46,080 nt of DNA. Origin: Fundidesulfovibrio soli (GTDB taxonomy: Bacteria > Desulfobacterota > Desulfovibrionia > Desulfovibrionales > Desulfovibrionaceae). Below the pieces are notes generated by a model. That model was not told the DNA's origin, ran no database searches, and saw nothing but the letters and a program-made list of their open reading frames with translations. Positions 7,280 to 41,598 of the stretch are shown here, piece after piece; the first letter of the stretch is position 1, and every line of letters begins with the position of its first letter. The stretch spans positions 62,903 to 108,982 of the forward strand of contig NZ_JAKZKW010000012.1 of NCBI RefSeq assembly GCF_022808695.1, written 5' to 3'. A program made the translations under genes and the position numbers.

Positions 7280-7564
7280 TTACAGCACCCTCCCTCGTTC
7301 CGCGTTCACGTCCGAGCCCAGCCGCTCCCGGGCCTGCTCCCCGGCGGCGGCCAGGCTGTGCAGCCCGGCCAGGAATTCCTCCAGCGCGGCCAGCCCGGCC
7401 TTGAGCCGGGTGAAACCCGGAGCGTCGCCGGGTTCCAGGGCCAGGATGGCCTCCCGCCGGGCTGCTAGCTGCGCTTCCAGCAGAGCGCGCACGGCGTCGC
7501 ATTCCAGCAGGCGGGCCACCTCTTCGCCTTGCAGGGCCTGGCGTTCCAGTTCCTCCCGGTTCAC
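7280..7564 (-). CDS. Small coiled-coil protein downstream of portal
   Basis: This is a 94-residue helical protein starting at GTG (VNREELERQA), with the GTG overlapping the portal stop as GTGA. It is rich in Ala, Glu, Leu and Arg with a heptad look (EEVARLLECDAVRALLEAQL). I do not recognise it. Overlap with the portal gene marks it as a member of the terminase-portal operon. Small helical proteins next to portals can be scaffold-like or accessory head proteins, but nothing in the sequence proves that here. Confidence 0.7.
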   Translation of the reverse strand: MNREELERQALQGEEVARLLECDAVRALLEAQLAARREAILALEPGDAPGFTRLKAGLAALEEFLAGLHSLAAAGEQARERLGSDVNAERGRVL

Positions 7565-9639: not shown

Positions 9640-10950
9640 TTAAAGAAAACGGGAAGGCTCAATGCCTTCCGCGTGGTTGCAGGTTTCCTCCGCCGCCTGG
9701 AACCGGTCGGCGTGGGCCATGGTCAGCACGAAGGCGTCGGCAAGGTTGGGGGAGGGCACGCCGCGTCGCTTGAGCTCGTCCTTGCCCTCCACCTTGATCC
9801 TGCCGCTGGGCAGGTAGGCGTAGCGCGGGGCCGAAAGCTCGGCGGCCAGCTTGTGGGCCAGGGGAACGGTGTCGTCGATGGCGGCCGTGCGGCTGGCGAA
9901 GAACTCGCGGGCCTTCCACCACAGCTCGTCGCGGCGGCGGTTGAAGCGCTCCGAGGAGGCCGCGGCCTCGGCCACGTTCACTGCCACGGCGGGCAGGCCC
10001 CAGCCGGAGAGGATGTGCGCCGCGCCCGCGCCCCAGCCCACGCTGTCCACGTAGAGGGCCTCGGGGCGCATCAGCTCGAAGCACTCGCGGGCGCGCCCGG
10101 CCACGGCCAGGGAGTCGTCCAGCCGGAACTCCTCCACATGCAGCACCTTGCCGCCCTGGCGCACCACGATGGCCGAGGGGTCGCCGCCGAGCGACAGGCC
10201 CACGTCCAGGCCCATGACCAGCCCGCTGTGCCGGTAGCCCACGTTGCGGCCCACGGCGTCCAGCACGCAGGCCAGGGGGATGAGGCAGTCCTCCCCGGTG
10301 ACATCGAAGTCGCACTCGTACTCCTGGCGGAACTGGGCCTGGCTCATCTGCGAGCGGGCGGACTCCAACTCCTCGCCGGGGATCAGGCCCGTGGCGCTGG
10401 CCGGGAAGCGGGCCGCGTACCAGGCCGGGTCGCGCAGGGCGTTCTGGTAGAGCTGGTGGAAGTGGTTGTGGCCGCGCGGGGTGCCGATGAACACGGCGAA
10501 GCCGCGCCTGTCCGAGAGGGCGGGCCGGATGACCATGGAGTAGGCCTCGGGCCGGAAATCGGCGTATTCGTCCAGGACCGCGCCGTCGAGGTAGATGCCG
10601 CGCAGGCTGTCGGGCTGGTCCGCGCCGTAGAAGCTGATGCGCGCGCCGTTCTCGAAATCCACACAGAGGCCGGTCTCGTTGGCCTTGGCCCCGGGCACGG
10701 CCAGGGCGTAGCGTTTGAGGTAGTCCCAGGCCACGCGCTTGGCCTGCACCAGGGTGGGGGCCACATAGGCCAGGCGCTGGGCGGGCTGGCCGTCGCGATG
10801 CGCGGCGTCGATGAGCGCGTTGACGCAGAGCACGGTCTTGCCGAAGCGCCGGTGGCAAACCAGCACGGAGAAGCGCTTGAGCCCGGCGTGGATCTCGCGC
10901 TGGAAGCGGAGCGGCGCGTAGCCCGTGTGCACGGTGATGTCGGTTTCCAT
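9640..10950 (-). CDS. Phage terminase large subunit
   Basis: This is the packaging motor and nuclease, 436 residues. The ATPase domain has a Walker A variant CHRRFGKT (residues 32-39), Walker B AVLDEYADF (D127, E128) and a coupling motif near FIGTPRG. The C-terminal RNase H-like nuclease domain starts at VMGLDVGLSLGGDPS, with ALYVDSVGWG and a late NLADAFVLTMAH supplying the other acidic residues. All key residues look intact. There is no clear Shine-Dalgarno before the ATG; instead the ATG is the conserved one at the end of the hairpin leader (see 10987-11008). No small terminase gene is next to it. Portal follows after 9 bp. Confidence 0.88.
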   Translation of the reverse strand: METDITVHTGYAPLRFQREIHAGLKRFSVLVCHRRFGKTVLCVNALIDAAHRDGQPAQRLAYVAPTLVQAKRVAWDYLKRYALAVPGAKANETGLCVDFENGARISFYGADQPDSLRGIYLDGAVLDEYADFRPEAYSMVIRPALSDRRGFAVFIGTPRGHNHFHQLYQNALRDPAWYAARFPASATGLIPGEELESARSQMSQAQFRQEYECDFDVTGEDCLIPLACVLDAVGRNVGYRHSGLVMGLDVGLSLGGDPSAIVVRQGGKVLHVEEFRLDDSLAVAGRARECFELMRPEALYVDSVGWGAGAAHILSGWGLPAVAVNVAEAAASSERFNRRRDELWWKAREFFASRTAAIDDTVPLAHKLAAELSAPRYAYLPSGRIKVEGKDELKRRGVPSPNLADAFVLTMAHADRFQAAEETCNHAEGIEPSRFL

Positions 10951-10986
10951 GAACCGGGCAGTGTACTCAGGAAAGCTCCGCCGTCA

Positions 10987-11008
10987 CCCCACATAGGGCT
11001 ATGTGGGG
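10987..11008 (-). promoter_or_regulatory. Conserved hairpin H1 in the terminase leader
   Basis: A perfect 10-bp stem CCCCACATAG / CTATGTGGGG with a GG loop lies 37 bp before the terminase ATG. On the plus strand it is followed by AGAAAGTTGA. On the minus strand it is followed by TGACGGCGG and a conserved TTTCCTGAGTACACT tract leading to the ATG. Four related copies occur in the window (H2-H5), always on the 5' side of minus-strand phage-type genes or their remnants. It could be an operator palindrome or an RNA structure. Confidence 0.75.
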
Positions 11009-11102
11009 AGAAAGTTGAAAATTGTCGGAGGATGGGGAGCGGGGCGAGTGATGAGGGACGGCGCGAATTGACGCGTAGTCTTATATTTGCTAGCACGTTT
11101 GC

Positions 11103-11219
11103 ATGGGTAAGAAATTCGAAGCCCTGCCGCTGGTTCTGAAAATCCTCGTGGATGTCGGTTCCATGCTCACGGGCGGCGTAGCGGCTACGGTTCTGTTTTA
11201 TTGGCTGTTCTTCAAATGA
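11103..11219 (+). CDS. Tiny single-helix membrane protein, copy 1 (38 aa)
   Basis: The frame encodes MGKKFEALPLVLKILVDVGS followed by a hydrophobic helix and ends LFYWLFFK. A second copy at 12605-12721 differs mainly by conservative changes in the helix (Met to Ile, Val to Ala, Val to Leu, Lys to Arg). This suggests selection on the peptide. The N-terminus is basic and amphipathic, with one transmembrane helix. It is divergent from the terminase gene across hairpin H1. I do not recognise a family; holin-like or immunity-like roles are both possible. Confidence 0.6.
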   Translation: MGKKFEALPLVLKILVDVGSMLTGGVAATVLFYWLFFK

Positions 11220-11243
11220 AACGTCTGGGCAGGAAGTAGCGCG

Positions 11244-11390
11244 ATGGAAAATGCATCACACCCTCATAATAAGGTTTTAAGGACTCTCTGGAGTTGGTTC
11301 GCATGGTTTCTTTTGATTTGGGCTTTTTGGGGGGTATCTTTACTTTCTCATCTTTCTAACTGTGTTTGCCGGGAGACATCATGGTTTTAA
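11244..11390 (+). CDS. Tiny Trp-rich membrane protein (48 aa)
   Basis: A 48-residue frame starts MENASHPHNKVLRTLWSWFA, with a hydrophobic Trp/Leu helix and a cysteine-containing tail. AGGAAG lies about 8 bases upstream. The equivalent slot of the next cassette (12720-12872) holds a related reading frame with PHPHDEALKRLWSMF, which supports this being a genuine family. No known family is recognised. It overlaps the start of the next small gene by 10 bp. Confidence 0.45.
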   Translation: MENASHPHNKVLRTLWSWFAWFLLIWAFWGVSLLSHLSNCVCRETSWF

Positions 11391-11563
11391 AGGTGGTGTA
11401 TAGAAAGATTGCTTCATGGTTTTTGGGCGATTTTCTGGTAATTAATTGTGAGGCACAACCGTCGATTATAATGCGTTTTTTTAATAATGCATTTAAATCT
11501 TTTGTTTTGTTTTGCATCGTCTATTCCGGAGCTCTTTTCCGGTGTAATTGGTACTGCTATTGA
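11381..11563 (+). CDS. Small membrane protein (60 aa)
   Basis: The start MVLKVVYRKIASW is preceded by GGGAG at 5 bases. The protein has an amphipathic first half and a hydrophobic C-terminal helix (FKSFVLFCIVYSGALF). The gene is AT-rich compared with its surroundings, which suggests foreign origin. The corresponding position of the next cassette is taken by the 62-residue protein at 12869-13057, with similar length and layout. Function is unknown. Confidence 0.45.
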   Translation: MVLKVVYRKIASWFLGDFLVINCEAQPSIIMRFFNNAFKSFVLFCIVYSGALFRCNWYCY

Positions 11564-11580
11564 TTGTTCAATGTTCAAAC

Positions 11581-11606
11581 AGGCGCGGCCGATTTCGACC
11601 GCGCCT
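11581..11606. terminator. Hairpin between convergent genes of cassette 1
   Basis: An 8-bp stem AGGCGCGG (11581-11588) / CCGCGCCT (11599-11606) sits between the last tiny plus-strand gene and the stop (11612) of the convergent variable gene. A hairpin occupies the same place in cassette 2 (13931-13950). Confidence 0.55.
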
Positions 11607-11611
11607 GGGCA

Positions 11612-12394
11612 TTACAGGTCTATGTGCGGCTGTAGGTTCTTGAGATTTGCCCCAAGTTTTGGGGTAAGATAACCGGCGAGGGCACCCGCAGCTGCAGCGA
11701 GACCCAGCCCACCCGTCCCGATAGCCGCGCCGAAGGGTACTAACGGCGTTAGGTAATCTTCGGCCTCGCGCAATCCGCGAATTTCAACAATGTCCTTTTT
11801 CTGCTCCCAGTAGTCGTGTATTGGCGGAGTGTGCTCCAGTTCAGGACCCGCATTGGGCGTATCCGGCGTATTGTGCCACTCCTCCCGCCTTCTCAAGTAC
11901 TCCTGCCGGTCGTAGTCCCCGCCAGCCTGTTCGATCCGTTTGGCATCCAGCGCGGCTGCGGCGTCGGGGTGCAGTTGCATCTGGCCGCCAGGGATTTCGT
12001 CGTTTCGCAGAAACGTGTTGCCCCCGGCTTTGTAGTAGTTTTGGCCTGCGTGTGAGAACTCGTTCTGGCCCTCCAGACTGCTCAAGGCCTTATCGTACCT
12101 TTTGAAGGTCGGGTCGCCCGCGCGCTCACCCGTGGATTGCCTCAGGCTGCCAAGTGTCGCCCAGGATGGCGATCCGGGTTCCTCGGCCTGCTGCTCCATC
12201 TTCCTCAAATGCGCCACCGCGAGATCGCCATAGGTCAGGGTCTTCGGCATCCTGTCCAGGGCCTCCTCCATCGTCAAAGCCGGTTGCGGTTCGGGTTGAG
12301 CGGGCTGCTGCACCCCGCCCTGGTTCGAGGCGGGGGGCGGGTCCATCTGGAACGGGTTCACGTTGGGCTGGTAGTCGTTGATGTCGTCGATCAT
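11612..12394 (-). CDS. Conserved-head/variable-tail protein 1 (260 aa)
   Basis: Residues 1-52 (MIDDINDYQPNVNPFQMDPP, then a Pro/Gln-rich stretch and MEEALDRMPKT) match the protein at 13956-14714 at all but two positions. Everything after residue 52 is unrelated to it. Here the variable part is polar and charged (residues about 53-210) and ends in a glycine-rich hydrophobic segment (FGAAIGTGGLGLAAAAGALA) with a short polar tail. The start has AAGGAG at 7 bases. No known family is recognised. A shared head with swapped tails is the pattern of polymorphic toxins or cargo proteins; phage ejection proteins are another possibility. It faces tiny membrane-protein genes. Confidence 0.7.
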   Translation of the reverse strand: MIDDINDYQPNVNPFQMDPPPASNQGGVQQPAQPEPQPALTMEEALDRMPKTLTYGDLAVAHLRKMEQQAEEPGSPSWATLGSLRQSTGERAGDPTFKRYDKALSSLEGQNEFSHAGQNYYKAGGNTFLRNDEIPGGQMQLHPDAAAALDAKRIEQAGGDYDRQEYLRRREEWHNTPDTPNAGPELEHTPPIHDYWEQKKDIVEIRGLREAEDYLTPLVPFGAAIGTGGLGLAAAAGALAGYLTPKLGANLKNLQPHIDL

Positions 12395-12527
12395 GCTGCG
12401 TCTCCTTGAGTGGTTGTTTCGCGCCTGGCCGACGTTACTGCCGGGCGCTCATGAACCGGGCAGTGTACTCAGGAAAGCGCCGCCGTCACCCCACATGGGG
12501 CTATGTGGGGAGAAAGTTGAAAATTGT
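12239..12527. repeat. 289-bp direct repeat, copy A
   Basis: This block is repeated at 14559-14847 with no gaps (offset 2320) and six mismatches that I counted (12354, 12390, 12435, 12437, 12465, 12497). It spans the first 52 codons of the variable-tail gene, its ribosome site, the leader and the hairpin. Identity stops abruptly at codon 52 on one side and in the sequence beyond AGAAAGTTGAAAATTGT on the other. Confidence 0.95.
12489..12510 (-). promoter_or_regulatory. Conserved hairpin H2
   Basis: The stem CCCCACATGG / CTATGTGGGG has one G.T (G.U in RNA) pair where H1 has A-T. It lies 95 bp before the start of variable-tail gene 1 and keeps the flanking AGAAAGTTGA and TGACGGCGG boxes. The wobble pair allows an RNA-level function as well as a DNA palindrome. 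Confidence 0.75.
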
Positions 12528-12604
12528 CGGAGGATGGGGAGCGGGGCGAGTGATGAGGGACGGCGCGGATTGACGCGTAGTCTTATATTTGCTAGCACGT
12601 TTAC

Positions 12605-12721
12605 ATGGGTAAGAAATTCGAAGACCTGCCGCTGGTTCTGAAAATCCTCGTGGATGTCGGCTCCATACTGACGGGCACCGCGGCGGCGACGCTTCTGTTC
12701 TATTGGTTGTTCTTCAGGTAA
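12605..12721 (+). CDS. Tiny single-helix membrane protein, copy 2 (38 aa)
   Basis: Paralogue of 11103-11219: MGKKFEDLPLVLKILVDVGS, then a hydrophobic helix ending LFYWLFFR. Length is identical and the changes between copies are mostly conservative. It is divergent from variable-tail gene 1 across hairpin H2. Function is unknown. Confidence 0.6.
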   Translation: MGKKFEDLPLVLKILVDVGSILTGTAAATLLFYWLFFR

Positions 12722-12872
12722 GATTGCAAGGTGGGAGTACCCTAAGGATATCGAACCTCATCCGCATGACGAAGCGCTCAAACGGCTCTGGTCAATGTTT
12801 GCAGGTCTCATGATAGCCTGGGGCACGGCAGGCATCATTGTGGTGTCGTTATTGGGCTGGAGCTGCAAATGA
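12720..12872 (+). pseudogene. Probable degraded relative of the 48-aa membrane protein
   Basis: A frame reading EPHPHDEALKRLWSMFAGLM, then a hydrophobic helix to a stop at 12870-12872, matches the layout of the 48-residue protein of cassette 1 (SHPHNKVLRTLWSW). No ATG, GTG or TTG opens it after the upstream in-frame stop, except an internal ATG at 12795 that would give only 25 residues without a ribosome site. It is either broken or translated by coupling. Confidence 0.35.
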
Positions 12873-13057
12873 TGGGCCGTCTACGTCAGCGTGTTTGCAA
12901 TGCGCGGAATATTATTGCACAACGGATAATTATTGATACGCATTTAGTGCGATTTGCAGAGTCGATCTGGAAGCGATATCTCATCAATTCAGCACTGTCA
13001 TTTTTAGTTACGGTGTTTGCGCATTCATTCGTGATAATCACATGCAAGTATTTTTAA
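12869..13057 (+). CDS. Small membrane protein (62 aa)
   Basis: The protein starts MMGRLRQRVCNARNIIAQRI. It has a basic N-terminal half and a hydrophobic C-terminal helix (INSALSFLVTVFAHSFVII). The ATG overlaps the preceding stop (ATGA), as expected in a compact operon. It fills the same slot as the 60-residue protein of cassette 1 and shares its size and layout but little sequence. It is AT-rich. No known family is recognised. Confidence 0.5.
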   Translation: MMGRLRQRVCNARNIIAQRIIIDTHLVRFAESIWKRYLINSALSFLVTVFAHSFVIITCKYF

Positions 13058-13270
13058 AATGCGGCGACAAGTTGGTCAGCTTGCCGCCGCGCTGTCGTGG
13101 TTAATTGTCCAAATAGTACAACCGGATCTGGCCGTCGGGAATTCAGGCGTATCGCCCGGATTGCTGCCTCCATGGAGGGCGAGTGCCGCGCACAATGAAA
13201 TTCATTTCACATACATGATGATTGATGTCTAGCGGTTGCCGAACTAGGTTGCGGAAAAGGAGCAGCAGGC

Positions 13271-13366
13271 ATGAAAAAGGTTCTGTTCGAGCTGAGCAAG
13301 GTGGTGCTGGGGCTGCTTTTGGCATGCCTCACGATAGTGATGTTCAAGCTTGTTTCGAGGATGTGA
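13271..13366 (+). CDS. Tiny membrane protein a (31 aa)
   Basis: The frame MKKVLFELSKVVLGLLLACL continues to a short basic end. AAGGAG lies about 9 bases upstream. It is a single hydrophobic helix with lysines at the front. It opens a three-gene micro-operon (a, b, c) that is repeated in damaged form at about 13685-13926. Function is unknown. Confidence 0.45.
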   Translation: MKKVLFELSKVVLGLLLACLTIVMFKLVSRM

Positions 13367-13368
13367 CC

Positions 13369-13488
13369 ATGGGGGACTATTTTACCTCGCGCCTGGCGAC
13401 TGATGAAGGTGCGAAGGATTATGCCGACGGAGTGACAGCGGCTTGGTTCGGTTATGCCATGCTGTATTGCATATGGAGGTTGATATGA
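13369..13488 (+). CDS. Tiny protein b (39 aa)
   Basis: The frame MGDYFTSRLATDEGAKDYAD ends in an aromatic hydrophobic segment (WFGYAMLYCIWRLI). It starts 2 bp after gene a. Its copy b' at 13730-13855 shares M-x-DYF-x-x-RLATD and AK, so the frame is supported by duplication with protein-level conservation. Confidence 0.5.
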   Translation: MGDYFTSRLATDEGAKDYADGVTAAWFGYAMLYCIWRLI

Positions 13489-13565
13489 AGCTGAACGACT
13501 ATTGGAAAGCAGTATTGTCACATTGCTGGACTTTTTTGCTTTTTTATTGTGGTGTCCACTGGTAG
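13485..13565 (+). CDS. Tiny protein c (26 aa)
   Basis: The frame MKLNDYWKAVLSHCWTFLLF ends GVHW. Its ATG overlaps the b stop (ATGA). The copy c' (13852-13926) keeps the same overlap, an N-terminal MK, a Tyr at position 4 or 6, and a hydrophobic Trp/Leu/Tyr core. It is probably a membrane peptide. Confidence 0.4.
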   Translation: MKLNDYWKAVLSHCWTFLLFYCGVHW

Positions 13566-13684
13566 ATTGTTACTGTATTGTGTTGAAAGGGGGAGCGGCT
13601 TGATCGCAGCGTCTGTCGCATTCGGTGCGGAAGTTGGTTGCCTTATATACTGTGCAGTTGATGTGTATGCGGCGGGATTCTGGC

Positions 13685-13729
13685 CAGCCTCACGATAGCG
13701 CTGTTCAAACATGTTTCGAGGATGAGACC
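13685..13729 (+). pseudogene. Remnant of tiny gene a (a')
   Basis: The DNA around CAGCCTCACGATAGCGCTGT and the following TTTCGAGGATG matches the 3' half of gene a. The start codon is missing because a stop lies upstream in frame, and the terminal TGA has become AGA. It marks a tandem duplication of the a-b-c module, after which the first gene decayed. Confidence 0.5.
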
Positions 13730-13855
13730 ATGTGGGACTATTTTGCGTTACGACTGGCGACAGATGCGAGTGCCAAAAGGTATTTCGCTTTTGTTATGGT
13801 GTATAATTTCATGTGGATCGGGCTGTATTGTGTGGCCATGTGGGCGTGTAAATGA
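13730..13855 (+). CDS. Tiny protein b' (41 aa)
   Basis: The frame MWDYFALRLATDASAKRYFA is followed by a hydrophobic Met/Val/Tyr/Trp segment ending WACK. It is a diverged copy of protein b. The first third is conserved and the rest is more hydrophobic, with one likely membrane helix. Confidence 0.5.
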   Translation: MWDYFALRLATDASAKRYFAFVMVYNFMWIGLYCVAMWACK

Positions 13856-13926
13856 AAGAATATTTTCGTGATGTGGTTTTGTTTGCGTGGCTCTACCTCA
13901 CCCTGTACTGGGGTTTCCCGCTATAA
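13852..13926 (+). CDS. Tiny protein c' (24 aa)
   Basis: The frame MKEYFRDVVLFAWLYLTLYW ends GFPL. Its ATG overlaps the b' stop. It is a very short hydrophobic peptide directly before the terminator hairpin. It is supported only by its similarity in place and pattern to c. Confidence 0.4.
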   Translation: MKEYFRDVVLFAWLYLTLYWGFPL

Positions 13927-13930
13927 ACAA

Positions 13931-13957
13931 AGGGCGGCTTTCGCCGCCCTGTCTTTT
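13931..13957. terminator. Terminator between convergent genes of cassette 2
   Basis: The 8-bp stem AGGGCGGC / GCCGCCCT with a TTTC loop is followed by GTCTTTT on the plus strand. It ends the tiny-gene operon and overlaps the stop end (13956) of the convergent variable-tail gene 2, as in cassette 1. Confidence 0.75.
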
Positions 13958-14714
13958 AAGGGTAGTCGTGGGGTTCATTCTCGATGAACACGTGCGGCCC
14001 TTGCTGGGGTATAGGGTGGTGATAGCTCTCGTCGAGATACTTTCGAGTATTTTCGTAGCCATTTGCTCCACCCCAGAGAGCGCCTGCAACGGCTCCACCC
14101 AACGCGCCAATTTCACTTCCCGCAGGATGTACCTCAGCGCCTAGCCGTTGTCCCCCGGCCATCCAGCTAAGGGCCGTCGATGCCGCCCCCACGGGCAACC
14201 CTGCCACCCCCGCCACCACATCGGTTTCCCCCGGAGTCAGCTTCCGGGTCGGAAGCTGGTCTACGAAGTGATAGTACGTCCCGTCTTTCTCCTCCGATCT
14301 GATGATGTTGTACGGCTGTGAGGATTCGATGGGTTGCCCCTCGAATTGGATGGGCCGTCCGTAGGTTCCCTCACCAGTCCGGTAAGTTGGGAACGTTGGT
14401 TTCGGGAGGTAGTCGAAGGCGTTGTAGGATGGCTCGTCGCCCGTGTTCAAACCTCCGATGCCTTTGCCGCCGTCAAGCCCACCGCTTTCAGGCGAACCCT
14501 CAACTGATTGAGGATCGACTCTGGGCATGAATTTCTTGGCGAGGTCGATCCAGGTGATGGTCTTCGGCATCCTGTCCAGGGCCTCCTCCATCGTCAAAGC
14601 CGGTTGCGGTTCGGGTTGAGCGGGCTGCTGCACCCCGCCCTGGTTCGAGGCGGGGGGCGGGTCCATCTGGAACGTGTTCACGTTGGGCTGGTAGTCGTTG
14701 ATGTCGTCGCTCAT
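13956..14714 (-). CDS. Conserved-head/variable-tail protein 2 (252 aa)
   Basis: The first 52 residues match protein 1 except for Ser2 and Thr14. After that the sequence is unrelated: a polar region with ITWIDLAKKFMPRVD and PTRKLTPGETDVV, then a glycine/alanine-rich hydrophobic stretch (VVAGVAGLPVGAASTALSWM and IGALGGAVAGALWGG) and a polar His-rich tail. Both proteins thus end in a glycine-zipper-like membrane segment despite unrelated sequence. AAGGAG lies 7 bases before the ATG. It faces its own set of tiny membrane-protein genes. No family is recognised; a membrane-active cargo or toxin with a shared loading domain is my inference. Confidence 0.7.
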   Translation of the reverse strand: MSDDINDYQPNVNTFQMDPPPASNQGGVQQPAQPEPQPALTMEEALDRMPKTITWIDLAKKFMPRVDPQSVEGSPESGGLDGGKGIGGLNTGDEPSYNAFDYLPKPTFPTYRTGEGTYGRPIQFEGQPIESSQPYNIIRSEEKDGTYYHFVDQLPTRKLTPGETDVVAGVAGLPVGAASTALSWMAGGQRLGAEVHPAGSEIGALGGAVAGALWGGANGYENTRKYLDESYHHPIPQQGPHVFIENEPHDYP

Positions 14715-14847
14715 GCTGCGTCTCCTTGAGTGGTTGTTTCGCGCCTGGCCGACGCTGCTGCCGGGCGCTCATGAACCGGGCAGTTTACTCAGGAAAGCGC
14801 CGCCGTCACCCCACATAGGGCTATGTGGGGAGAAAGTTGAAAATTGT
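14559..14847. repeat. 289-bp direct repeat, copy B
   Basis: This is the partner of 12239-12527 (six mismatches counted, no gaps). Unlike copy A, its distal side does not continue into a 38-residue membrane protein gene, so the tandem array ends here. The leader peptide frame that stops after MSARQ in copy A is open here and runs into the variable gene in another frame. Confidence 0.95.
14809..14830 (-). promoter_or_regulatory. Conserved hairpin H3
   Basis: Identical to H1 (CCCCACATAG, GG, CTATGTGGGG) with both flanking boxes, 95 bp before variable-tail gene 2. Confidence 0.75.
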
Positions 14848-14937
14848 TCGGGGAAGGGGGAAGAGGCGGAGGCAGCCGCTCGCACCTTGGGACGCTGTAT
14901 CGTCGGGTCTATGCTGATATTCAGGATGGGCGGCTTG

Positions 14938-14959
14938 GCGGAGGCCGGGTGGCCTCCGC
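14938..14959. terminator. GC-rich hairpin
   Basis: A perfect 9-bp stem GCGGAGGCC / GGCCTCCGC with a GGGT loop lies 84 bp past the stop of the 151-residue gene. There is no U-tract. It could be a terminator or an intergenic palindrome. I see nothing else in 14848-15042. Confidence 0.4.
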
Positions 14960-15042
14960 CGTGAAACGCTCGCCCCGGAAGGGGCTGAAGGGGATATTCT
15001 ATCGCCGGATCACCCGGCGGGGCCCGCTACGGGCGGGCAGGG

Positions 15043-15498
15043 CTAGCGCGGGAACTGGGCGCTGCACTCGTAGAGGTCGTTGTTGCAGTTGGCCACGCAG
15101 GCCGCCCGCTGGTACGGGTCCCGGATGGTGTTGCAGTAGTTGGCGCAGCGGTTCCACTGGGCGTTGCACTGCTGGCGGGCGCGCCTGGAGAAGGATTCGT
15201 AGCTCTCGCCGGGGTAGGGTGCGATGGCGCCGCCGAAATAGCGCTGGGTGCGCCAGTGCCACTGGTCGTCGTACCAGTGGCGGGCGGCGCGCTCACGCTC
15301 GCGTTCAAGCCTGCGCTCTTCCCGGCGCATCTCTTTCTCTTCGCGTCTGCGTTCCCGCTCGTACCTGTCCTGATCCTTGTAGTAATCCTTTCCGTTCCGG
15401 TAGTAATCATCGTCGCCATAGGCGCTTACGCTCACGGGCTGGGTCAGGAACGCCAACGCCAGCAGCGGGGCGAAAAGCAGCATGAGAAGAATTTTCAT
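15043..15498 (-). CDS. Secreted charged, cysteine-containing protein
   Basis: The protein is 151 residues. The start has AGGAG about 8 bases upstream and opens a clear Sec signal peptide (MKILLMLLFAPLLALAFL, cleavage near VSA). Residues about 28-70 are an acidic/basic Asp/Tyr/Lys then Arg/Glu-rich helix (YERERRREEKEMRREERRLE). The C-terminal third has six cysteines in CNAQWNRCANYC and CVANCNNDLYEC, which probably form disulfides in the periplasm. No known family is recognised. Hairpin H4 lies about 285 bp upstream on the same strand, but no gene fills the gap. Confidence 0.75.
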   Translation of the reverse strand: MKILLMLLFAPLLALAFLTQPVSVSAYGDDDYYRNGKDYYKDQDRYERERRREEKEMRREERRLERERERAARHWYDDQWHWRTQRYFGGAIAPYPGESYESFSRRARQQCNAQWNRCANYCNTIRDPYQRAACVANCNNDLYECSAQFPR

Positions 15499-15781
15499 GA
15501 ATCGTACTCCTGTGCGAATGCTTCGCCCATCCTTTCACACGGATGCAAGCGGAGGTCAACGCGGCGGGCCTGGTATCGGATGGCCTGGCATCCTTTGGAA
15601 GAGCGGCAGGGAAGGGCCGGGTTTATCGGCTGGGCTCCCGTATACCGCACCGTTTTGTCTGCCTGTGCGAGGGAGGATTGCCAGACTGAATATTCCGTCC
15701 AGACGCAGTTTTCAGGGATCCTGACTCGCTGCAGTCCTCCAAGGCATCGTCGGTAGCGCACTCACGAACGCGCCGCCGTCA

Positions 15782-15803
15782 CCCCACAGCGGGCTCTGTG
15801 GGG
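15782..15803 (-). promoter_or_regulatory. Diverged conserved hairpin H4
   Basis: CCCCACAGCG / CTCTGTGGGG keeps the fold with a compensatory change (a T-A pair in H1 becomes G-C) and one mismatch. AGAAAGTTG and TGACGGCGGCGC flank it as in H2, and TGAGTGCGCT matches the leader. No intact minus-strand gene follows at the expected distance. The 15499-15781 gap holds only a weak 88-codon frame, so a cassette has probably been lost here. Confidence 0.65.
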
Positions 15804-15863
15804 AGAAAGTTGCCGATTTCTTCTGGACGGTTGGAGAGATGCGGGATGGGAGGAGAGAAAATC

Positions 15864-15891
15864 GGGGCCGCGTCCGGCAGGACGCGGCCCC
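15864..15891 (-). terminator. Terminator of the lactate permease gene
   Basis: A perfect 12-bp stem GGGGCCGCGTCC / GGACGCGGCCCC with a 4-base loop is followed on the minus strand by GATTTTCTC. A second short stem (CCCGCTCA/TGAGCGGG, around 15914) lies between it and the stop codon. Confidence 0.8.
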
Positions 15892-15962
15892 AATGAGGGT
15901 TCAGGCTGGGAGCCCGCTCATTGAGCGGGGCCACTCAGCCAGCGATTGTCGTTTACAGGCTG

Positions 15963-18410
15963 CTAGCCCTTGAGGAACAGGCTGCCCAGGTAGACGAACA
16001 CGCCCAGGAACGCCACGTACACCATGCAGTACTTGAGCGTCTGGTTCAGTATCCTGCCCTCCGAGCCCACCAGCCCGGTGGCGGCGGTGGCCACGGCGAT
16101 GCTCTGGGGCGAGATCATCTTGCCGCCCGTGGCGCCCGCCGTGTTGGCGGCGGCCAGCCAGTAGGGGTCCACACCGGTCTTGGAGGCCACTTCCACCTGG
16201 AGCTTGCCGAAGAGCACGTTGGCCGAGGTGTCGCTGCCGGTAACGAAGGTGCCCAGCGCCCCGATCATGGGGGAGATGAACGCGAAATACGGTCCCGTCA
16301 CCTTCACCAGCACCACCGCGATGGCCGAGATCATGCCGCTGTAGGCCATCACCTTGGACATGGACACGATGCACAGCACCGTGAAGGCCGACTTGGAGAG
16401 CTTCTTCACGGTCATGAAGAACACCGAGACGATCTCGCCCATCCTCGCACCCTGGATCAGCCCGGCGATCACCGTGGCGATGATGATCAGCGTGCCCGGG
16501 GTGGCGATCCACTTGAACACGAAGGGCGCCGCGCCCTTGCCCTGGTAGATGGTCACGGAGGTCTTGATGGAGGCCAGGGCCTTGTACACCGGCTCCACCA
16601 CGGGGCTGCTGCCCACGATGAAGGCCAGCACCAGGATGTAGGGCAGCCAGGCCAGGAAGCCCTGCTTGAAGGTGATGGAGGGCCCGGCCTGTCCGTCGTG
16701 CTCCTCCTTGTAGAATTTCTTGGCGATGAAGATGGTGACGGCCATGCTGCATACGCTGCCCGCCAGGGCCGGGAGCTCCGCGCCCAGGAACCTGGCCGCG
16801 AGCAATTCGGGGATGGCGAAGGCCGCGCCCGAAGCCAGGGAGATGCCGACCACGCCCTTCAAGCCCTTGAGGCTCCGGGTGGTGAGCACCACCAGCAGCA
16901 TGGGGATGACGATGATGAACAGGGTGAGCTGCAGGGCGATCTGGTAGCTCAGGATGTTCACGTCCAAGTTGGTGAGCTGGGCCAGGGTCAGCACCGGGAT
17001 GCCGATGGCCCCAAAGGCGGTGGGCACGGTGTTGGCGGTCAGGCAGATGAGCGCCGCGAACAGGGGGTCGCAGCCCAGGGCCGCCAGGATGGAGGCCGGG
17101 ATGGCCACCGCCGTGCCGTAGCCCGCCACGGCCTCCAGGAAGCCGCCGAAGCCCCAGGCCAGGATGAGCACCTGGATGCGGCGGTCCGTGGTGATGTTGG
17201 CCAGCATGGTCTTGATGGTGTCCATGCTCTTGGTGTGCAGGGCCATGTTGTAGGTGAAGATGGCCGCCACGATGACCAGCACGATGGGCCACAGGCCCAG
17301 CGCCGCGCCCTCCAGCGTGGCCGTGAGCGCCCAGAGCGCGGGCATGTTGAAGGCGGCCAGGGCCAGGGCCACGGTGATGCCCAGGGAGAGCAGGGTGGCC
17401 ACGTGGGCGGGCATCTTGAGCACGCCGAGCGAAATCATCAGCCAGATGATGGGGATGATGGCCAGGCCGAACAGGCCGTACATCTTGGCGGCAGAGTGGC
17501 GGAACTCGCCGCAGCCGATCCAGAGGTCGTCATCGACCCGCACCACGTAGGAGGACTTCTCGTAGCCGTCCCACTTGTAGTCCACCCAGCCGCCGCCCTT
17601 GCTCACGGTGGCGATCATCTCCCTGATGAAGGGCTTGCCGTCGGGGTCCTTCATGTCCAGGAGTTCCTTGCCGACGAGCTCGTGGTGGGTGGCCAGGGAC
17701 TTGTTCACCCCGTTGAAGTCGTAGGCGAAGATGTAGAGCCCGCGGTCCACGAAGGCGCCGTTGGGCTTGTTGAATTCGGCCAGGGCCTTCTCCTTGCCCA
17801 CGGCCTTGATGTAGGCCAGGGCCTTCTCCACCAGGGTCACGGCTTCGTTTTTGTACTCGCCGCAGCCGATCCAGAGGGTGTCGTCGGCCTTGACCACGTA
17901 GGAGGTCTTCTCGTGGCCCTCCCAGATGTAGTCGTACCAGCCGCCGCCCTTGCGCACGAGGCCGATCATACCCTTGATGAACTCGCGGCCCTCGGCGTCC
18001 TTGGCGTCGATGAGGTTGGTGCCCACCAGGGCGGGGTTGGTGGCCAGGGCCTTGTTCACGCCGTAGAAGTCGTAGGCGAACACGTAGAGGCCGTCCTTCA
18101 CGAACTCACCGTCGGGGCTGTTGAAGGCGGCCAGGGCCTTATCCCTGCCGTTGGCCTTGAGGTAGGCCAGGGCTTTGTCCACCAGGGCCACGCAGTTGCC
18201 GCCCTTGTCGGGCAGGGCGGAGGGGTCGCCGGGGGCAGGTTCGTCGGCGGCGATGGCTGGGGCGGCCAGGCCAAGGGAAACGGCCACGACCAGGGCGGCG
18301 GCCAGGGCGAACCAGGCGCGCGCGCCCGCAACGGGCCGGTGTTTGCGGATTGTGCGGGAAGGCTCCCTGCGGAGCGCGGAAAGGCCAAAGGCGAATGACT
18401 TCAAACTCAC
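15963..18410 (-). CDS. L-lactate permease with two N-terminal Cache-like sensor repeats
   Basis: This 815-residue inner-membrane protein takes up lactate, the preferred donor of many sulfate reducers. It starts at GTG with GAAGGG upstream. It has a basic N-terminus, a hydrophobic segment (about 32-55), then two tandem copies of a periplasmic module, residues about 71-186 and 187-302. Both carry ALAYxKAxGxxKALAxFN, GLYxFAYDFxGVNK, a KGGGWxDYxW segment and end LWIGCGE; this is the single-Cache (sCache_2) pattern. Residues 310-815 form a complete LctP permease with many helices (FGGFLEAVAGYGTAVAIPAS; GTFVTGSDTSANVLFGKLQ). Usual LctP proteins are about 550 residues. The fusion suggests ligand sensing built into transport; the gene is monocistronic. 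Confidence 0.9.
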   Translation of the reverse strand: MSLKSFAFGLSALRREPSRTIRKHRPVAGARAWFALAAALVVAVSLGLAAPAIAADEPAPGDPSALPDKGGNCVALVDKALAYLKANGRDKALAAFNSPDGEFVKDGLYVFAYDFYGVNKALATNPALVGTNLIDAKDAEGREFIKGMIGLVRKGGGWYDYIWEGHEKTSYVVKADDTLWIGCGEYKNEAVTLVEKALAYIKAVGKEKALAEFNKPNGAFVDRGLYIFAYDFNGVNKSLATHHELVGKELLDMKDPDGKPFIREMIATVSKGGGWVDYKWDGYEKSSYVVRVDDDLWIGCGEFRHSAAKMYGLFGLAIIPIIWLMISLGVLKMPAHVATLLSLGITVALALAAFNMPALWALTATLEGAALGLWPIVLVIVAAIFTYNMALHTKSMDTIKTMLANITTDRRIQVLILAWGFGGFLEAVAGYGTAVAIPASILAALGCDPLFAALICLTANTVPTAFGAIGIPVLTLAQLTNLDVNILSYQIALQLTLFIIVIPMLLVVLTTRSLKGLKGVVGISLASGAAFAIPELLAARFLGAELPALAGSVCSMAVTIFIAKKFYKEEHDGQAGPSITFKQGFLAWLPYILVLAFIVGSSPVVEPVYKALASIKTSVTIYQGKGAAPFVFKWIATPGTLIIIATVIAGLIQGARMGEIVSVFFMTVKKLSKSAFTVLCIVSMSKVMAYSGMISAIAVVLVKVTGPYFAFISPMIGALGTFVTGSDTSANVLFGKLQVEVASKTGVDPYWLAAANTAGATGGKMISPQSIAVATAATGLVGSEGRILNQTLKYCMVYVAFLGVFVYLGSLFLKG

Positions 18411-19024
18411 AACGTTTCCCTTCTCTAGTATGATTTATGCCGCATGCGCGGCCCCGCGCCCGTGGAAGACCCACGGAGAGCGCGGCGCGAGGCCGGGGCT
18501 GCGGCACGGTGACAAGGAAGTTCGTGCCTGTGTCAGGGCATGTCGGGGGAGGGACCAGAGGTTTTGGAGCCCGTGGGGCGCTCCCGGCATGTCGTCGCCG
18601 GCCGGCGGGCGCAGTCCGCGGGAGCGGACGGGCGCGACGCCTGGGCCGGTGGCCCGGCTGGATAGCAACCCATGTGCCAGCGAAGGCTTTTTCAGATATT
18701 ATGCGTGATTTCGATGTGATGCGTGCTGATGTCAGGCGCGAGGGAGGGACGTCCGGGACGGCTGGTACGAAAAACAAGACGTATCGTATCCATGAGCGGA
18801 GGCTCACCTTCGCCGAAGTGCTCGATTTGGCAAAATTGTTATTGTGCTGCTCGGCTGGAACCGATGCGGTCCGATTATCTGGAAAACGGACGCAGGGGGG
18901 CGCTGGTGCCGGCCGCTCCTGCCGGAAGTGCTGCTTGGAAAGGGTGGCGATTCCCCCGTTTTTGGGTGGACACGGGTCGCCCGCTCACCGTATCAGGATG
19001 AAAATAGTAAGCCAGGAGAAGTAA
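18411..19024. other. Long intergenic region with no supported gene
   Basis: This is a 614-bp gap between divergent transcription units (lactate permease to the left, a small secreted protein to the right). It is GC-rich at 18430-18680 and less so after. Open frames exist on both strands, but none has a convincing start, ribosome site or recognisable product. The left edge contains a possible minus-strand -10 (CATACT) for the permease. The long 5' space may hold regulatory sites; I cannot identify them. Confidence 0.4.
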
Positions 19025-19372
19025 ATGGGCTCCAGTTTCCAAAAGGTTAAGGCGTTCGTGTTTCCCCTTGTGATGGCCGTGTCAGTTTGTTCGGCCTCGC
19101 TCGCGTTCGCGGGCGATTATTCCTTCAAGGTTCACAACCGCACCTCGGTCGCCATCAAGCAGGTGCTCGTGAAGGAGTCGGGGGGGAAGTGGGGGGCCTT
19201 CGACATCGGCTCCGGCATAGGGCCCGGCAAGAAGGCGACGCTCGTTTGGGCGGCGCACACCAACAGCCAGGACTGCGACCAGTGGATCAAGGTGGTGTAC
19301 GCCGACGGTTCCGAGTCGCAATCGACGAAATTCGACTTCTGCGAGGACGACCTGGTCCTTGAGTTCGATTAA
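19025..19372 (+). CDS. Small secreted protein, probable beta-sandwich
   Basis: The protein is 115 residues, with AGGAGAAG 3 bases before ATG. A signal peptide (VKAFVFPLVMAVSVCSASLAFA) is followed by about 85 residues of alternating polar and hydrophobic residues (DYSFKVHNRTSVAIKQVLVK) and an acidic end FDFCEDDLVLEFD. Two cysteines in the mature part may form a disulfide. No enzyme motif is seen and no family is named with confidence. It is followed by a strong terminator and is probably monocistronic. Confidence 0.7.
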   Translation: MGSSFQKVKAFVFPLVMAVSVCSASLAFAGDYSFKVHNRTSVAIKQVLVKESGGKWGAFDIGSGIGPGKKATLVWAAHTNSQDCDQWIKVVYADGSESQSTKFDFCEDDLVLEFD

Positions 19373-19426
19373 GCCGGCATCCGCCGCGGCCTAGCGGCTG
19401 AGGGCGGTCGCGCCCCGGCAACACGG

Positions 19427-19459
19427 CCGGCCCCGGACAGGCGTCCGGGGCCGGTTTTT
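19427..19459 (+). terminator. Rho-independent terminator
   Basis: The 12-bp stem CCGGCCCCGGAC / GTCCGGGGCCGG with loop AGGC is followed by TTTTT. It ends the secreted-protein gene and lies just before the stop of the convergent phage adaptor gene. Confidence 0.88.
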
Positions 19460-19463
19460 CGTT

Positions 19464-20075
19464 CTACACCAGCCAGCCGCGCCGCTGCACGGTCACGGGC
19501 GAGATGGCGGAGTAGGTGTTCAGCAGGTTGTTCTCCAGGTCGGCCAGGAGCTGGGTGTCCGCGCCGATGTCCATCTCGTCGATGTTCTTCAGGCGCAGGG
19601 CCGCGTACTCGCTGACCAGGTCGTCGAGCTTGCCGCCGAAGGGCGTGGGGGAGTCCATGTCCAGGGTGGCGGTGTCGAAGAGCGGCCAGTAGATCAGCAC
19701 CAGCGGGATCGAGCCCGTGGGCGCGCCGCCCACCAGGAGCGTCTCGCCCCGGATGAGCCAGGTGGAGCACTCGGCGGGCGTGCCCTGCTGCTGCCAGGAG
19801 TCGTCGCTCTGCTTGGTCAGGCGGGTGGCGGTGTCCTCGCGGTAGAGGCCGTAGTCGGCCATGAAGTCCGCCGGGAGGGGGTAGTCGTCGCGCCCGGGCT
19901 CCGTGGTGAAGCGGTACAGGCAGCGCCCCAGCTCGATGTCGTTGCGGTAGAGCACATGCGAGAGCCTGCGGTAGGCCTTGCCCACCACGCGCAGGAGCTG
20001 CGCGTCGCTCCAGCGGGTTTTGAGCTCGTCGCCCAGTTCAAGCCGTGTGTTGTCGATCAGGTCTGCGATGGTCAT
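19464..20075 (-). CDS. Phage adaptor / head-tail connector-like protein
   Basis: The protein is 203 residues, starting MTIADLIDNTRLELGDELKT, with GGGAGAATCA directly before the ATG. Phage adaptor proteins that extend the portal vertex share this layout: an N-terminal helical region (RWSDAQLLRVVGKAYRRLSHV), a central DYPLPADFM segment where bases of such adaptors often have a Pro-Leu-Pro motif, a beta region around WLIRGETLLVGG and C-terminal helices. It stands alone, about 8.5 kb from the terminase-portal operon and on the same strand, preceded by a diverged copy of the same hairpin (H5). That is why I treat it as part of a dispersed phage-derived set. The family call is by pattern and is moderate. 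Confidence 0.7.
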   Translation of the reverse strand: MTIADLIDNTRLELGDELKTRWSDAQLLRVVGKAYRRLSHVLYRNDIELGRCLYRFTTEPGRDDYPLPADFMADYGLYREDTATRLTKQSDDSWQQQGTPAECSTWLIRGETLLVGGAPTGSIPLVLIYWPLFDTATLDMDSPTPFGGKLDDLVSEYAALRLKNIDEMDIGADTQLLADLENNLLNTYSAISPVTVQRRGWLV

Positions 20076-20128
20076 TGATTCTCCCTGCCAGGGAACCCCC
20101 ACCATACCCGATTTCGTGATTCTCGCAG

Positions 20129-20148
20129 CCCACATGGGGCTATATGGG
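20129..20148 (-). promoter_or_regulatory. Diverged conserved hairpin H5
   Basis: CCCACATGG / CTATATGGG keeps the central GGGG and most pairs of H2, with one mismatch, and AAAAAAGTGA replaces AGAAAGTTGA. It lies 53 bp upstream of the adaptor gene start. The outer TGACGGCGG box is not conserved. Confidence 0.5.
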
Positions 20149-20249
20149 AAAAAAGTGAGCGTCAGGATGATTTTTCCTCCGTCCCCTTTGACGGGGGGCG
20201 GCTGAGGTACTAAACAGTAATTCCCAATACCTTTGATGGAGATTGACAA

Positions 20250-21035
20250 ATGAACGTGGCGATACTCATCGATGGAAGCTTTTTCTGGATGAAGCATTTG
20301 GAGGCCCGCCTGGGCCAACCGCCCAGCGCGGAATCGGTCAAGATGGCTTGCGACCTCATCATGCAGGACAAAGAGTTCGAGTCGGACAGGTTTTTCAGGG
20401 CATACTACTATGATTCGCCGCCCTACGGCGGCAAGGCGGTGCACCCCATCTCCCAGAGGGAGATCGAGTTCAGCGCCACCGAACAGTATCGCATCAAGAA
20501 CGACTACCTCGACCAGCTCTGGCGCATGCCGCGCATGGCCCTGCGCCTCGGCTCGCTCGCCATGCAGGGCTGGAAGCTCAACAAGAAGAACATGCGCGTG
20601 ATCATGGAGTCCCTGAGCCACAACCGCCCGCTTCAGCCCCAGGACGTGTCCATCAACCTGGTGCAGAAGGAGGTGGACATGCTCATGGGCCTGGACATCG
20701 CCTGGATAGCGGCCAGCCGAATGGTGGAGAAGATCGTGCTGCTCACCGGCGACGCGGACATGATCCCGGCCATGAATTTCGCCCGCGAGCACGGCCTCTT
20801 GGTGTTCGTGGCCAAGTTCGGCTACTACCTCTCGGACAAGCTGCGCGACAACTCCGACGGCGTGGTGGAGTTCAACCTGCCCGCGCCGGAGCGGCCCTAC
20901 GCCCCCAGCGCCAGGATCGTCTCCATGCCCGCTCCGGCGGCCCCCGAACAGCCCGCTCCCGTGGAGGGCGCCGAGGGCCTGGGCGAGGAGCTCACCGAGG
21001 ACACGCCGGAGATGCCCGGCGACCCCATCTACTAG
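20250..21035 (+). CDS. NYN-domain (LabA/DUF88-like) endoribonuclease
   Basis: The 261-residue protein has a PIN-like NYN fold: first acidic strand MNVAILIDGSFF, second acidic site QKEVDMLMGLDIAW, third LLTGDADMIPAMNFA, followed by GLLVFVAKFG. These supply the Asp cluster that binds metal. Residues after about 215 form a disordered Pro/Glu-rich tail. The family includes RNases of unknown targets. GGAG lies upstream of the start. A hairpin and 104 bp separate it from the radical SAM gene, so it may be a separate unit. Confidence 0.82.
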   Translation: MNVAILIDGSFFWMKHLEARLGQPPSAESVKMACDLIMQDKEFESDRFFRAYYYDSPPYGGKAVHPISQREIEFSATEQYRIKNDYLDQLWRMPRMALRLGSLAMQGWKLNKKNMRVIMESLSHNRPLQPQDVSINLVQKEVDMLMGLDIAWIAASRMVEKIVLLTGDADMIPAMNFAREHGLLVFVAKFGYYLSDKLRDNSDGVVEFNLPAPERPYAPSARIVSMPAPAAPEQPAPVEGAEGLGEELTEDTPEMPGDPIY

Positions 21036-26389: not shown

Positions 26390-26465
26390 GGGCCGTTAAC
26401 TCAGTCGGTAGAGTACCTGCCTTTTAAGCAGAGAGCCGCAGGTTCGAATCCTGCACGGCCCACCA
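26390..26465 (+). tRNA. tRNA-Lys (anticodon TTT)
   Basis: The acceptor stem GGGCCGT / ACGGCCC closes with encoded CCA. The D-arm, the anticodon loop CTTTTAA (anticodon 26423-26425) and the T-arm GCAGG-TTCGAAT-CCTGC are complete. The top anticodon-stem pair is a C-A mismatch. Confidence 0.96.
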
Positions 26466-26471
26466 TATCGC

Positions 26472-26547
26472 GTCCCCATCGTCTAGTGGCCTAGGACGGC
26501 GGCCTCTCACGCCGCTAACAGGGGTTCAAATCCCCTTGGGGACGCCA
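26472..26547 (+). tRNA. tRNA-Glu (anticodon CTC)
   Basis: The acceptor stem GTCCCCA / TGGGGAC has G as discriminator and encoded CCA. The anticodon stem GCGGC/GCCGC encloses loop CTCTCAC (anticodon 26506-26508). The segment from the anticodon stem to CCA is repeated at 41599-41645 and is the integration site of the island. Confidence 0.96.
26501..26547 (+). repeat. attL: 47-bp 3' end of tRNA-Glu
   Basis: The 47 bases from GGCCTCTCAC to GACGCCA are identical to 41599-41645. The left copy keeps the tRNA functional. Identity ends at both edges in unrelated sequence. Confidence 0.93.
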
Positions 26548-33231: not shown

Positions 33232-33305
33232 GAGCAGCCTACCCTCTTCCTTGCGGCAGCAAGAATGCAGTTCGAAGAATCGTGATCAATACACGCCGGG
33301 CACGG

Positions 33306-34424: not shown

Positions 34425-34525
34425 GATGTTTCTCCTGCTGAACATGCTGCGTGCCAGTCACTCAATAGATTCCGAACAATAAATGCCTTCGACGCACGTG
34501 TATCCGACAGACGCCACGGCCAATG

Positions 34526-41378: not shown

Positions 41379-41392
41379 GGAAACACCTTTTG

Positions 41393-41481: not shown

Positions 41482-41598
41482 ACTCGCGATCAAAATAGAT
41501 AGTTTCTGGTCGTAGTCAAGCGCAAAGGTTTCTCGGAGAAAGCCACGCTATTAGTATATTAGAGAAGAAGAAGGTAGTCAGCAGCAAATTATGTTGAT

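What the first reader, a model, noticed from the sequence alone, without database searches (positions are those of the whole stretch)
10948..20149. One hairpin leader shared by dispersed phage-derived genes: a multi-locus particle regulon
Five copies of a 20-22-base hairpin (H1 10987, H2 12489, H3 14809, H4 15782, H5 20129) all have the same orientation. They precede the terminase-portal operon, both variable-tail genes, a vacant site and an isolated phage adaptor gene. H1-H4 also share AGAAAGTTG on one side and TGACGGCGG plus a TGAGT-x-C-x-CT tract on the other. The stem carries a wobble change (H2) and a compensatory pair change (H4). Packaging and connector genes are present, but no capsid, integrase or lysis genes are nearby. 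Gene transfer agents are known to have scattered loci under host control, and Desulfovibrio has long been reported to release one (Dd1). My inference is that this is a domesticated phage-like particle whose pieces are tied together by the hairpin leader.
Basis: partly seen in the sequence, partly recalled or inferred. Interest (0 to 1): 0.86.

Follow-up and report, generated by a model that had tools for sequence, protein, structure and literature searches.

The report
Scattered phage-particle genes sharing one promoter
A group of sulfate-reducing bacteria appears to have taken over a short-tailed phage, scattered its building-block genes over the chromosome and tied them, together with a changing set of possibly antibacterial proteins, to one shared DNA switch, so that the cell could make a virus-like particle of its own.

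Summary
The palindrome CCCAYATAG-SS-CTATRTGGG lies 22 nt before a TAnnnT -10 box, where a -35 would be: a DNA operator. The window's genome (Fundidesulfovibrio by its closest named relative) has 18 sites on ten contigs. Behind sites outside the window lie an SU10-type major capsid gene with a scaffold-position gene, a nozzle-position gene, and tail collar/fibre genes; the window has TerL-portal and an SU10 adaptor. Four further species have the same promoter-gene pairs; nozzle, fibre and adaptor loci keep their chromosomal place. A seventh genome lacks palindrome, capsid and nozzle, and two loci look empty there. One relative carries a homologous contiguous prophage with integrase. Core genes are under purifying selection; TerL keeps its catalytic residues. 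Other sites drive variable proteins with shared N-termini and differing C-termini (M23, SLT, weak CHAP, glycine-rich), some followed by paralogous secreted proteins, resembling polymorphic toxins with immunity. Best reading: a domesticated podovirus-like particle, GTA-like, probably with protein cargo. Particles, DNA content, cargo loading and regulator are untested.

The parts
10987..11008 (-). H1 palindromic operator of the TerL-portal promoter; -10 hexamer TACACT at 10960-10965
9640..10950 (-). terminase large subunit, ATPase and nuclease residues kept in 5 of 5 species aligned
   Evidence: phrog_2 9.2e-42; alignment; motif names recalled
7561..9630 (-). portal protein, SU10 type
   Evidence: SU10_portal 1.7e-76, phrog_1216 7.7e-49
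7280..7564 (-). 94-aa protein after portal; free podophages have a small gene at the same place
   Evidence: conserved in G001, G002, G005 and on L138; phage gene order
12489..12510 (-). H2 palindromic operator before variable gene A
11612..12394 (-). variable cargo-type protein A, N-terminus shared with B, glycine-rich hydrophobic C-terminal part
   Evidence: no Pfam family
14809..14830 (-). H3 palindromic operator before variable gene B
13956..14714 (-). variable cargo-type protein B, same N-terminus as A, unrelated C-terminal part
   Evidence: no Pfam family
15782..15803 (-). H4, decayed vacant copy (degenerate -10, no recognisable particle gene behind it)
20129..20148 (-). H5 palindromic operator before the adaptor gene
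19464..20075 (-). head-tail adaptor, SU10 type
   Evidence: SU10_adaptor 9.8e-14; phrog_399 1.5e-6
11103..11219 (+). 38-codon small membrane-type ORF tail-to-tail with variable gene A; possible immunity gene (weak, by position only)
   Evidence: read
12605..12721 (+). second copy of the small membrane-type ORF, on the side of variable gene B (weak, by position only)
   Evidence: read; lies in the duplicate

Best explanation
A podovirus-like (SU10-type) phage has been domesticated in this genus. Its structural genes now sit in separate loci: TerL-portal-small ORF; adaptor; scaffold-MCP-small ORF; nozzle-position gene plus 373 aa; collar/fibre operon. Each locus starts with the same promoter: a T-rich CAACTTTYT tract, a 20-22 bp palindrome centred near -44, no -35 box, and a TAnnnT -10 box. 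An unidentified, probably dimeric activator binding the palindrome is inferred to switch the loci on together. The same promoter drives a variable set of cargo-type genes; several follow short genes related to the scaffold-position gene. Their products share N-termini but mostly differ at the C-terminus (M23 peptidase, SLT transglycosylase, weak CHAP, glycine-rich membrane-type), and some are followed by paralogous secreted proteins or lipoproteins. Inferred working: the particle assembles, TerL fills it with DNA as in a gene transfer agent, cargo is loaded through N-termini or scaffold-like partners and delivered into or onto neighbouring cells. Shown: shared promoter, dispersal, orthologous promoter-gene pairs, selection on core genes, joint absence in G004 as far as searched. 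Inferred: particle formation, DNA packaging, cargo loading, toxicity and immunity, the activator.
For: 18 sites on 10 contigs with control 0 and 1. Palindrome in 6 of 7 genus genomes and 0 of 72 outside it. TAnnnT at offset 22 in 58 of 76 sites against 0.31% at random; 52 of 76 against 9 of 76 on the other side when oriented by the upstream tract. TerL, SU10 portal, SU10 adaptor, SU10 MCP and tail genes behind the sites. Same promoter-gene pairs in G001, G002, G003, G005. Nozzle, fibre and adaptor loci in the same host neighbourhood in all four. dN/dS 0.02-0.21 for MCP, adaptor, TerL, portal between G000 and G001. TerL catalytic residues invariant in 5 of 5. G004 lacks palindrome, MCP and nozzle and looks empty at two loci. 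Contiguous homologous prophage in G003 and contiguous order in free podophages. M23 and SLT domains in cargo-type genes; shared N-termini with differing C-termini; secreted paralogues after M23 cargo in two species, 1.3e-16.
Against: No experiment. Regulator not found. No dedicated holin-endolysin set recognised. Nozzle identity rests on position: no PHROG or Pfam match in G000, no convincing solved structure, and its prophage homologue matches families called amidase (5.1e-7) and virion structural protein (3.5e-4). Scaffold shows no similarity to an annotated phage scaffold, only 4e-6 to 7e-7 to the prophage gene. MCP locus is not in the same place everywhere: same in G001 and G005, beside the genes that flank the CHAP locus of G000 in G003, unresolved in G002. 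G003's domesticated portal is split and its MCP comes in pieces at contig ends, one with a stop. Several cargo genes in G000 are vacant, truncated or frame-broken (C15, C32, C4b). Cargo N-terminus E-values are for 24 hand-picked sequences. CHAP is below its cut-off. Immunity rests on position.
Confidence: 0.7

Rival explanations
1. Plain gene transfer agent: the particle exists to move host DNA, and the variable genes are lysis, wall-penetration or entry factors of the particle, not delivered toxins.
For: TerL with intact catalytic residues; multi-locus endogenous genes as in RcGTA and podovirus-like FpGTA in two operons; M23, SLT and CHAP are also common in phage lysis or entry (recalled).
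Against: Cargo genes turn over between close species while core genes hardly change; N-termini shared with differing C-termini; paralogous secreted partners.
Confidence: 0.4
2. DNA-free protein carrier: the capsid now carries only cargo proteins, and TerL is kept for another reason.
For: Large cargo-type repertoire; scaffold-like partner genes.
Against: TerL kept under purifying selection with intact residues.
Confidence: 0.12
3. Remains of a prophage whose pieces were scattered by recombination between repeats and are decaying.
For: Vacant or truncated copies (H4, C15, C32) and repeated cassette fragments; split portal in G003.
Against: Low dN/dS, orthologous loci, promoter spacing kept, joint absence in G004.
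Confidence: 0.05
4. RNA leader hairpin or regulatory RNA element.
For: The palindrome can fold; H2 carries a wobble and H4 one compensated pair.
Against: The -10 box lies downstream of the palindrome at fixed spacing; no Rfam family at the sites at gathering thresholds; dyad symmetry is equally expected of a dimer's DNA site; H4 is decayed.
Confidence: 0.03

Closest known systems
RcGTA and other gene transfer agents (PMC9662315, passages seen)
   Same: Caudovirus-type structural genes fixed in the host genome over several loci (RcGTA: five), TerL and MCP retained
   Different: Other phage lineage (SU10-type podovirus), one palindromic promoter shared by all loci, linked variable cargo-type genes; particle and DNA transfer not shown here
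FpGTA of Faecalibacterium (PMC12946183, section 9 read, other passages seen)
   Same: Podovirus-like set (TerS, TerL, portal, scaffold, MCP) in a host genome, split over two operons
   Different: Two operons with holin and endolysin there; here five structural loci plus many cargo loci, another phylum, no such lysis pair recognised
SU10-type and related podophages (ctXG6705 MW202481, Venkman MT375522)
   Same: Homologous TerL, portal and MCP; order TerL-portal-small ORF-scaffold-MCP
   Different: Contiguous in phages; split into separately promoted loci here, no integrase or replication gene seen at the loci
MuF polymorphic toxins of temperate phages (PMC5576092, passages seen)
   Same: Toxin-type variable C-termini tied to virion genes, with small neighbour genes as putative immunity
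   Different: MuF proteins lie within prophages and use a head domain; here short N-termini and scaffold-like partners in a dispersed domesticated set; MuF itself was not searched for
Dd1 of Desulfovibrio desulfuricans (named in PMC11841831 and PMC11409702, passages seen)
   Same: GTA reported from a related genus
   Different: No link tested: the 1987 paper is not held and I did not identify its genes

Membership tests
Gene transfer agent (criteria listed in PMC9662315, passages) | Particle genes homologous to caudoviricete structural genes | tested here: met
   TerL, SU10 portal, adaptor, MCP, tail genes
Gene transfer agent (criteria listed in PMC9662315, passages) | Genes fixed in the host genome, often over several loci | tested here: met
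   18 sites on 10 contigs; same pairs in four other species
Gene transfer agent (criteria listed in PMC9662315, passages) | Mostly vertical inheritance, co-diversification with the host | tested here: inconclusive
   Nozzle, fibre and adaptor loci at orthologous places but the MCP locus is not in all; no gene tree was made; G004 lacks the system
Gene transfer agent (criteria listed in PMC9662315, passages) | Caudovirus-like particles | not testable with these tools
   needs microscopy
Gene transfer agent (criteria listed in PMC9662315, passages) | Random host DNA packaged and delivered to other cells | not testable with these tools
   TerL residues intact is only permissive
Polymorphic toxin system | Shared N-terminal region with exchangeable C-terminal domains | tested here: met
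   on 24 hand-picked proteins
Polymorphic toxin system | C-terminal domains of toxin or hydrolase type | tested here: inconclusive
   M23 1.6e-19 twice, SLT 4.4e-8 and 1.3e-4; CHAP below cut-off; most others without family
Polymorphic toxin system | Cognate immunity gene next to the toxin gene | tested here: inconclusive
   homologous secreted proteins after M23 cargo in two species, lipoprotein paralogues; function untested
Mor/C-type phage late activation | Activator of family PF08765 in every genome that has the sites | tested here: not met
   G005 none, G000 only one match at 0.08 below cut-off; likeness of site position is recalled
Regulatory RNA leader | Hairpin lies within the transcript | tested here: not met
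   -10 box downstream of the palindrome at fixed offset

The most novel reading that the evidence does not exclude
A host-owned virus capsid used as carrier of a polymorphic toxin repertoire: toxin proteins are loaded through scaffold-like partners and shared N-terminal tags, each with its own immunity gene, and cargo and particle genes at more than a dozen chromosomal sites fire from one operator. This would be a capsid-based counterpart of tail-based weapons such as tailocins, eCIS and T6SS.
Probability: 0.38. Interest if true: 0.94.

Novelty: new variant of a known kind. Interest (0 to 1): 0.86.

Why it matters
It gives a sulfate-reducer genus a genetically defined candidate for a GTA-like particle, and an unusually clear case of a phage broken into separately promoted loci that are held together by one cis element over several species. 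The coupling of capsid genes with wall-degrading and membrane-type variable proteins makes the question whether a capsid can deliver toxins between bacteria directly testable. The operator is a ready bait for the master regulator.

Tried and rejected
Leader hairpin or RNA switch: rejected by the -10 position; Rfam gave only two tRNAs in the window. Mor-type activator: G005 has no match and G000 one at 0.08 below cut-off. ECF sigma gene beside the fibre locus as regulator: it is also in G004, which lacks the system. Nozzle identity by solved structures: only weak matches, best 0.0037 to an outer-membrane assembly lipoprotein; no similarity to a tail fibre protein of MW202481. Scaffold homology to the annotated scaffold of MW202481: none. 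The prophage's 709-aa protein in G000: none, without positive control; the 833-aa one was not searched. Identity with Dd1: not tested, paper not held. Literature, listings only: 0 papers with Fundidesulfovibrio and phage; 7 papers with gene transfer agent and polymorphic toxin, none about such a particle by title and start of abstract; 0 for a six-term dispersed-regulon search; 4 with Desulfovibrio, gene transfer agent and Dd1; 4. Subscription papers and preprints are not held, so novelty rests on these searches only.
Full report
Observation. The five palindromes are at the coordinates given. H1-H3 belong to segmental duplicates (300 bp at 96%, 267 bp at 94%), so they count for less than they seem. 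The window is the end of contig C12 of a 4.0-Mb genome in 41 contigs. The genus name comes from the closest MCP match, Fundidesulfovibrio agrisoli SG106, 100% identical (its contig length fits G001:C3). The window's own species is named by no call.

Genome-wide. With up to 3 mismatches the 20-base core occurs at 18 places on 10 contigs: C3, C4 (3), C5, C9, C10 (3), C12 (5), C15, C21, C23, C32; the reversed-pattern control gives 0 forward and 1 reverse. Of 79 genomes (7 of the genus, 72 of other genera of the family and order) it occurs in 6, all in the genus (G000-G003, G005, G006); controls 0. G004, same genus, 99% complete, has none.

What the element is. I aligned 76 sites from five genomes (G000 18, G005 17, G001 16, G003 13, G002 12; only sites in fetched stretches). 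Order: T-rich CAACTTTYTY, then CCCAYATAG-SS-CTATRTGGG, then gTGaaa, some ten free bases, CCTG-NN-TAnnnT. TAnnnT sits at offset 22 in 58 of 76 sites against 0.31% at random positions; orientation in that count was chosen by the -10 score. Oriented by the pyrimidine tract instead it is 52 of 76, against 9 of 76 on the other side. The centre dinucleotide is CC in G000 and G001 (16 of 18 and 16 of 16), CG in G002 (12 of 12), 12 of 13 in G003 and 12 of 17 in G005, while the arms stay. This is what a dimer site in place of a -35 box would look like. A transcript would start downstream of it, so it is not a leader hairpin. I recognised no HTH gene directly behind a site, though not every downstream ORF was searched against families.

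Genes behind it. Window: TerL (phrog_2 9.2e-42), portal (SU10_portal 1.7e-76), adaptor (SU10_adaptor 9.8e-14). C4: MCP (SU10_MCP 2.1e-74; solved chains 9ny2 9.7e-37 and 7z45 9e-15, the latter SU10 by recall) after a 307-aa scaffold-position gene. C10: a 499-aa nozzle-position gene and a 373-aa gene, neither with a family match; and an operon with Phage_tail_APC (4.3e-16), a tail protein (phrog_5939 5.1e-51), and a first gene whose G003 orthologue has a Collar domain (3.7e-17). By hand reading, 72 of 76 sites (G000 16 of 18, G001 16 of 16, G005 16 of 17, G003 13 of 13, G002 11 of 12) lead to a structural, scaffold-like or cargo-type gene. This includes remnants (for example L088, and L029, where the site abuts a truncated gene) and a few judged by looks (L077:4961, L106). 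H4, C15, L079:4938 and L117:3075 lead to nothing recognised. I saw none that leads directly to an unrelated host gene.

Unity. The same promoter-gene pairs recur in G001, G002, G003 and G005. Host flanks: every G000 region has its counterpart in G001. The nozzle, fibre and adaptor loci have theirs in G002, G003 and G005 too. The MCP locus has its counterpart in G005 only of these three: in G003 the MCP end lies beside the genes that flank the CHAP locus of G000, and in G002 contig ends leave it open. TerL and adaptor are neighbours in G002 and G003 and farther apart in G000, G001 and G005. MCP was found in G000-G003 and G005, and not in G006 (66% complete), which has nozzle, adaptor and the TerL start. 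G004 has no MCP, nozzle or palindrome. There the host genes flanking the fibre operon match about 0.13 kb apart, and the genes matching window 20250-21035 and 1912-3219 lie about 0.26 kb apart; in the window some 17 kb lie between these two, host-type genes included. TerL and adaptor were not searched over the whole of G004. dN/dS, G000 against G001: MCP 0.02, adaptor 0.11, TerL 0.15, portal 0.21, scaffold 0.54; against more distant orthologues 0.2 to 0.65 (simple Nei-Gojobori; script ended before the nozzle). TerL keeps CHRRFGKT, LDEYAD, D249, D302 and D405 in 5 of 5 sequences (motif naming recalled).

Origin. G003 has on C1 a low-GC run (0.33-0.47 per kb) with TerL, portal, scaffold, MCP, 106 aa, adaptor, nozzle-type, 362 aa, 833 aa, 709 aa, collar and fibre genes in this order, 22-46% identical to the dispersed set, and an integrase (phrog_1 5.9e-57). 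No palindrome was found there (up to 3 mismatches in L110; exact in L137). Free podophages have TerL-portal-small ORF-scaffold-MCP in one run. The dispersed set is thus most simply a broken-up phage of this kind. In G003 the domesticated portal gene is in two parts, one at the edge of low-GC sequence on C8, one beside the integrase on C1, so the prophage seems to sit inside it; this is inferred across a contig gap, and no shared core of 13 bases or more was found.

Variable genes. Cargo-type proteins share N-termini in groups (an MSER-DDP group and an AESY-FNGG group) while most C-termini differ; C9var and L086, C4a and L108b, and the two SLT, two M23 and three metallopeptidase-like proteins are related over the C-terminal part as well (24 hand-picked proteins). 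Recognised domains: M23 (1.6e-19 in G005 and in G002), SLT (4.4e-8 in G001, 1.3e-4 in G005), CHAP (0.0028, below cut-off). A metallopeptidase-like family (HELHH in G005, lost in G000; my reading; no Pfam match) is followed by one to four lipoprotein-like paralogues. M23 cargo in two species is followed by homologous secreted-type proteins (1.3e-16). Short genes related to the scaffold-position gene precede several cargos; C3's is 39% identical to it, the others 21-29%, a weak link. MCP-end and p14051 fragments recur next to cargo genes downstream of MCP, as if cargo were swapped by recombination. Between G000 and G001 the core is nearly unchanged while cargo differs: varA and varB are absent from the G001 locus, and the C15 and C21 sites differ.

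Judgement. Shared promoter and domestication about 0.93; particle made about 0.75; DNA inside about 0.6; cargo are delivered toxins about 0.4. The nearest kinds are gene transfer agents (RcGTA in five loci; FpGTA, podovirus-like, two operons) and phage-borne MuF toxins. It meets the genomic GTA criteria that I could test, apart from an inconclusive one on vertical inheritance; the experimental ones are open.

Noticed in passing
L139 (G003:C8:199000-216741) near 3.5 kb; L138 (G003:C1:19001-38000) 675-2275: A low-GC relative of the ancestral phage, with integrase, appears to be integrated in the portal gene of the domesticated locus of G003.
   Followed up: partly
L020 14051-15974 (C4); L087 1955-5838; L118 6890-8895: Repeated fragments of the MCP end and p14051 next to variable genes, like a cassette array for cargo exchange.
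   Followed up: partly
L125 and L151 (G004:C19), L150 (G004:C8): G004 lacks the system; its host flanks lie 0.13 and 0.26 kb apart at two loci.
   Followed up: partly
window 20250-21035: Conserved gene divergent from the adaptor gene, present in all 7 genus genomes; NYN-type by recall, no family search made.
   Followed up: partly
L023 15792-19499: ECF sigma factor gene with further genes lies upstream of the fibre operon in G000, G001, G002, G003 and G005; its neighbourhood is also in G004, so probably host.
   Followed up: yes
window 40224-41483 and 26390-26544: Integrase gene (1.6e-28), two tRNA genes, a transposase piece at 26688 and an RND-type efflux cluster at 28530-34445: a separate accessory region by looks.
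   Followed up: no
L085 5027 and 7409 (G005:C4): Two tandem palindrome-led genes of SLT type; only the second was searched against Pfam.
   Followed up: partly
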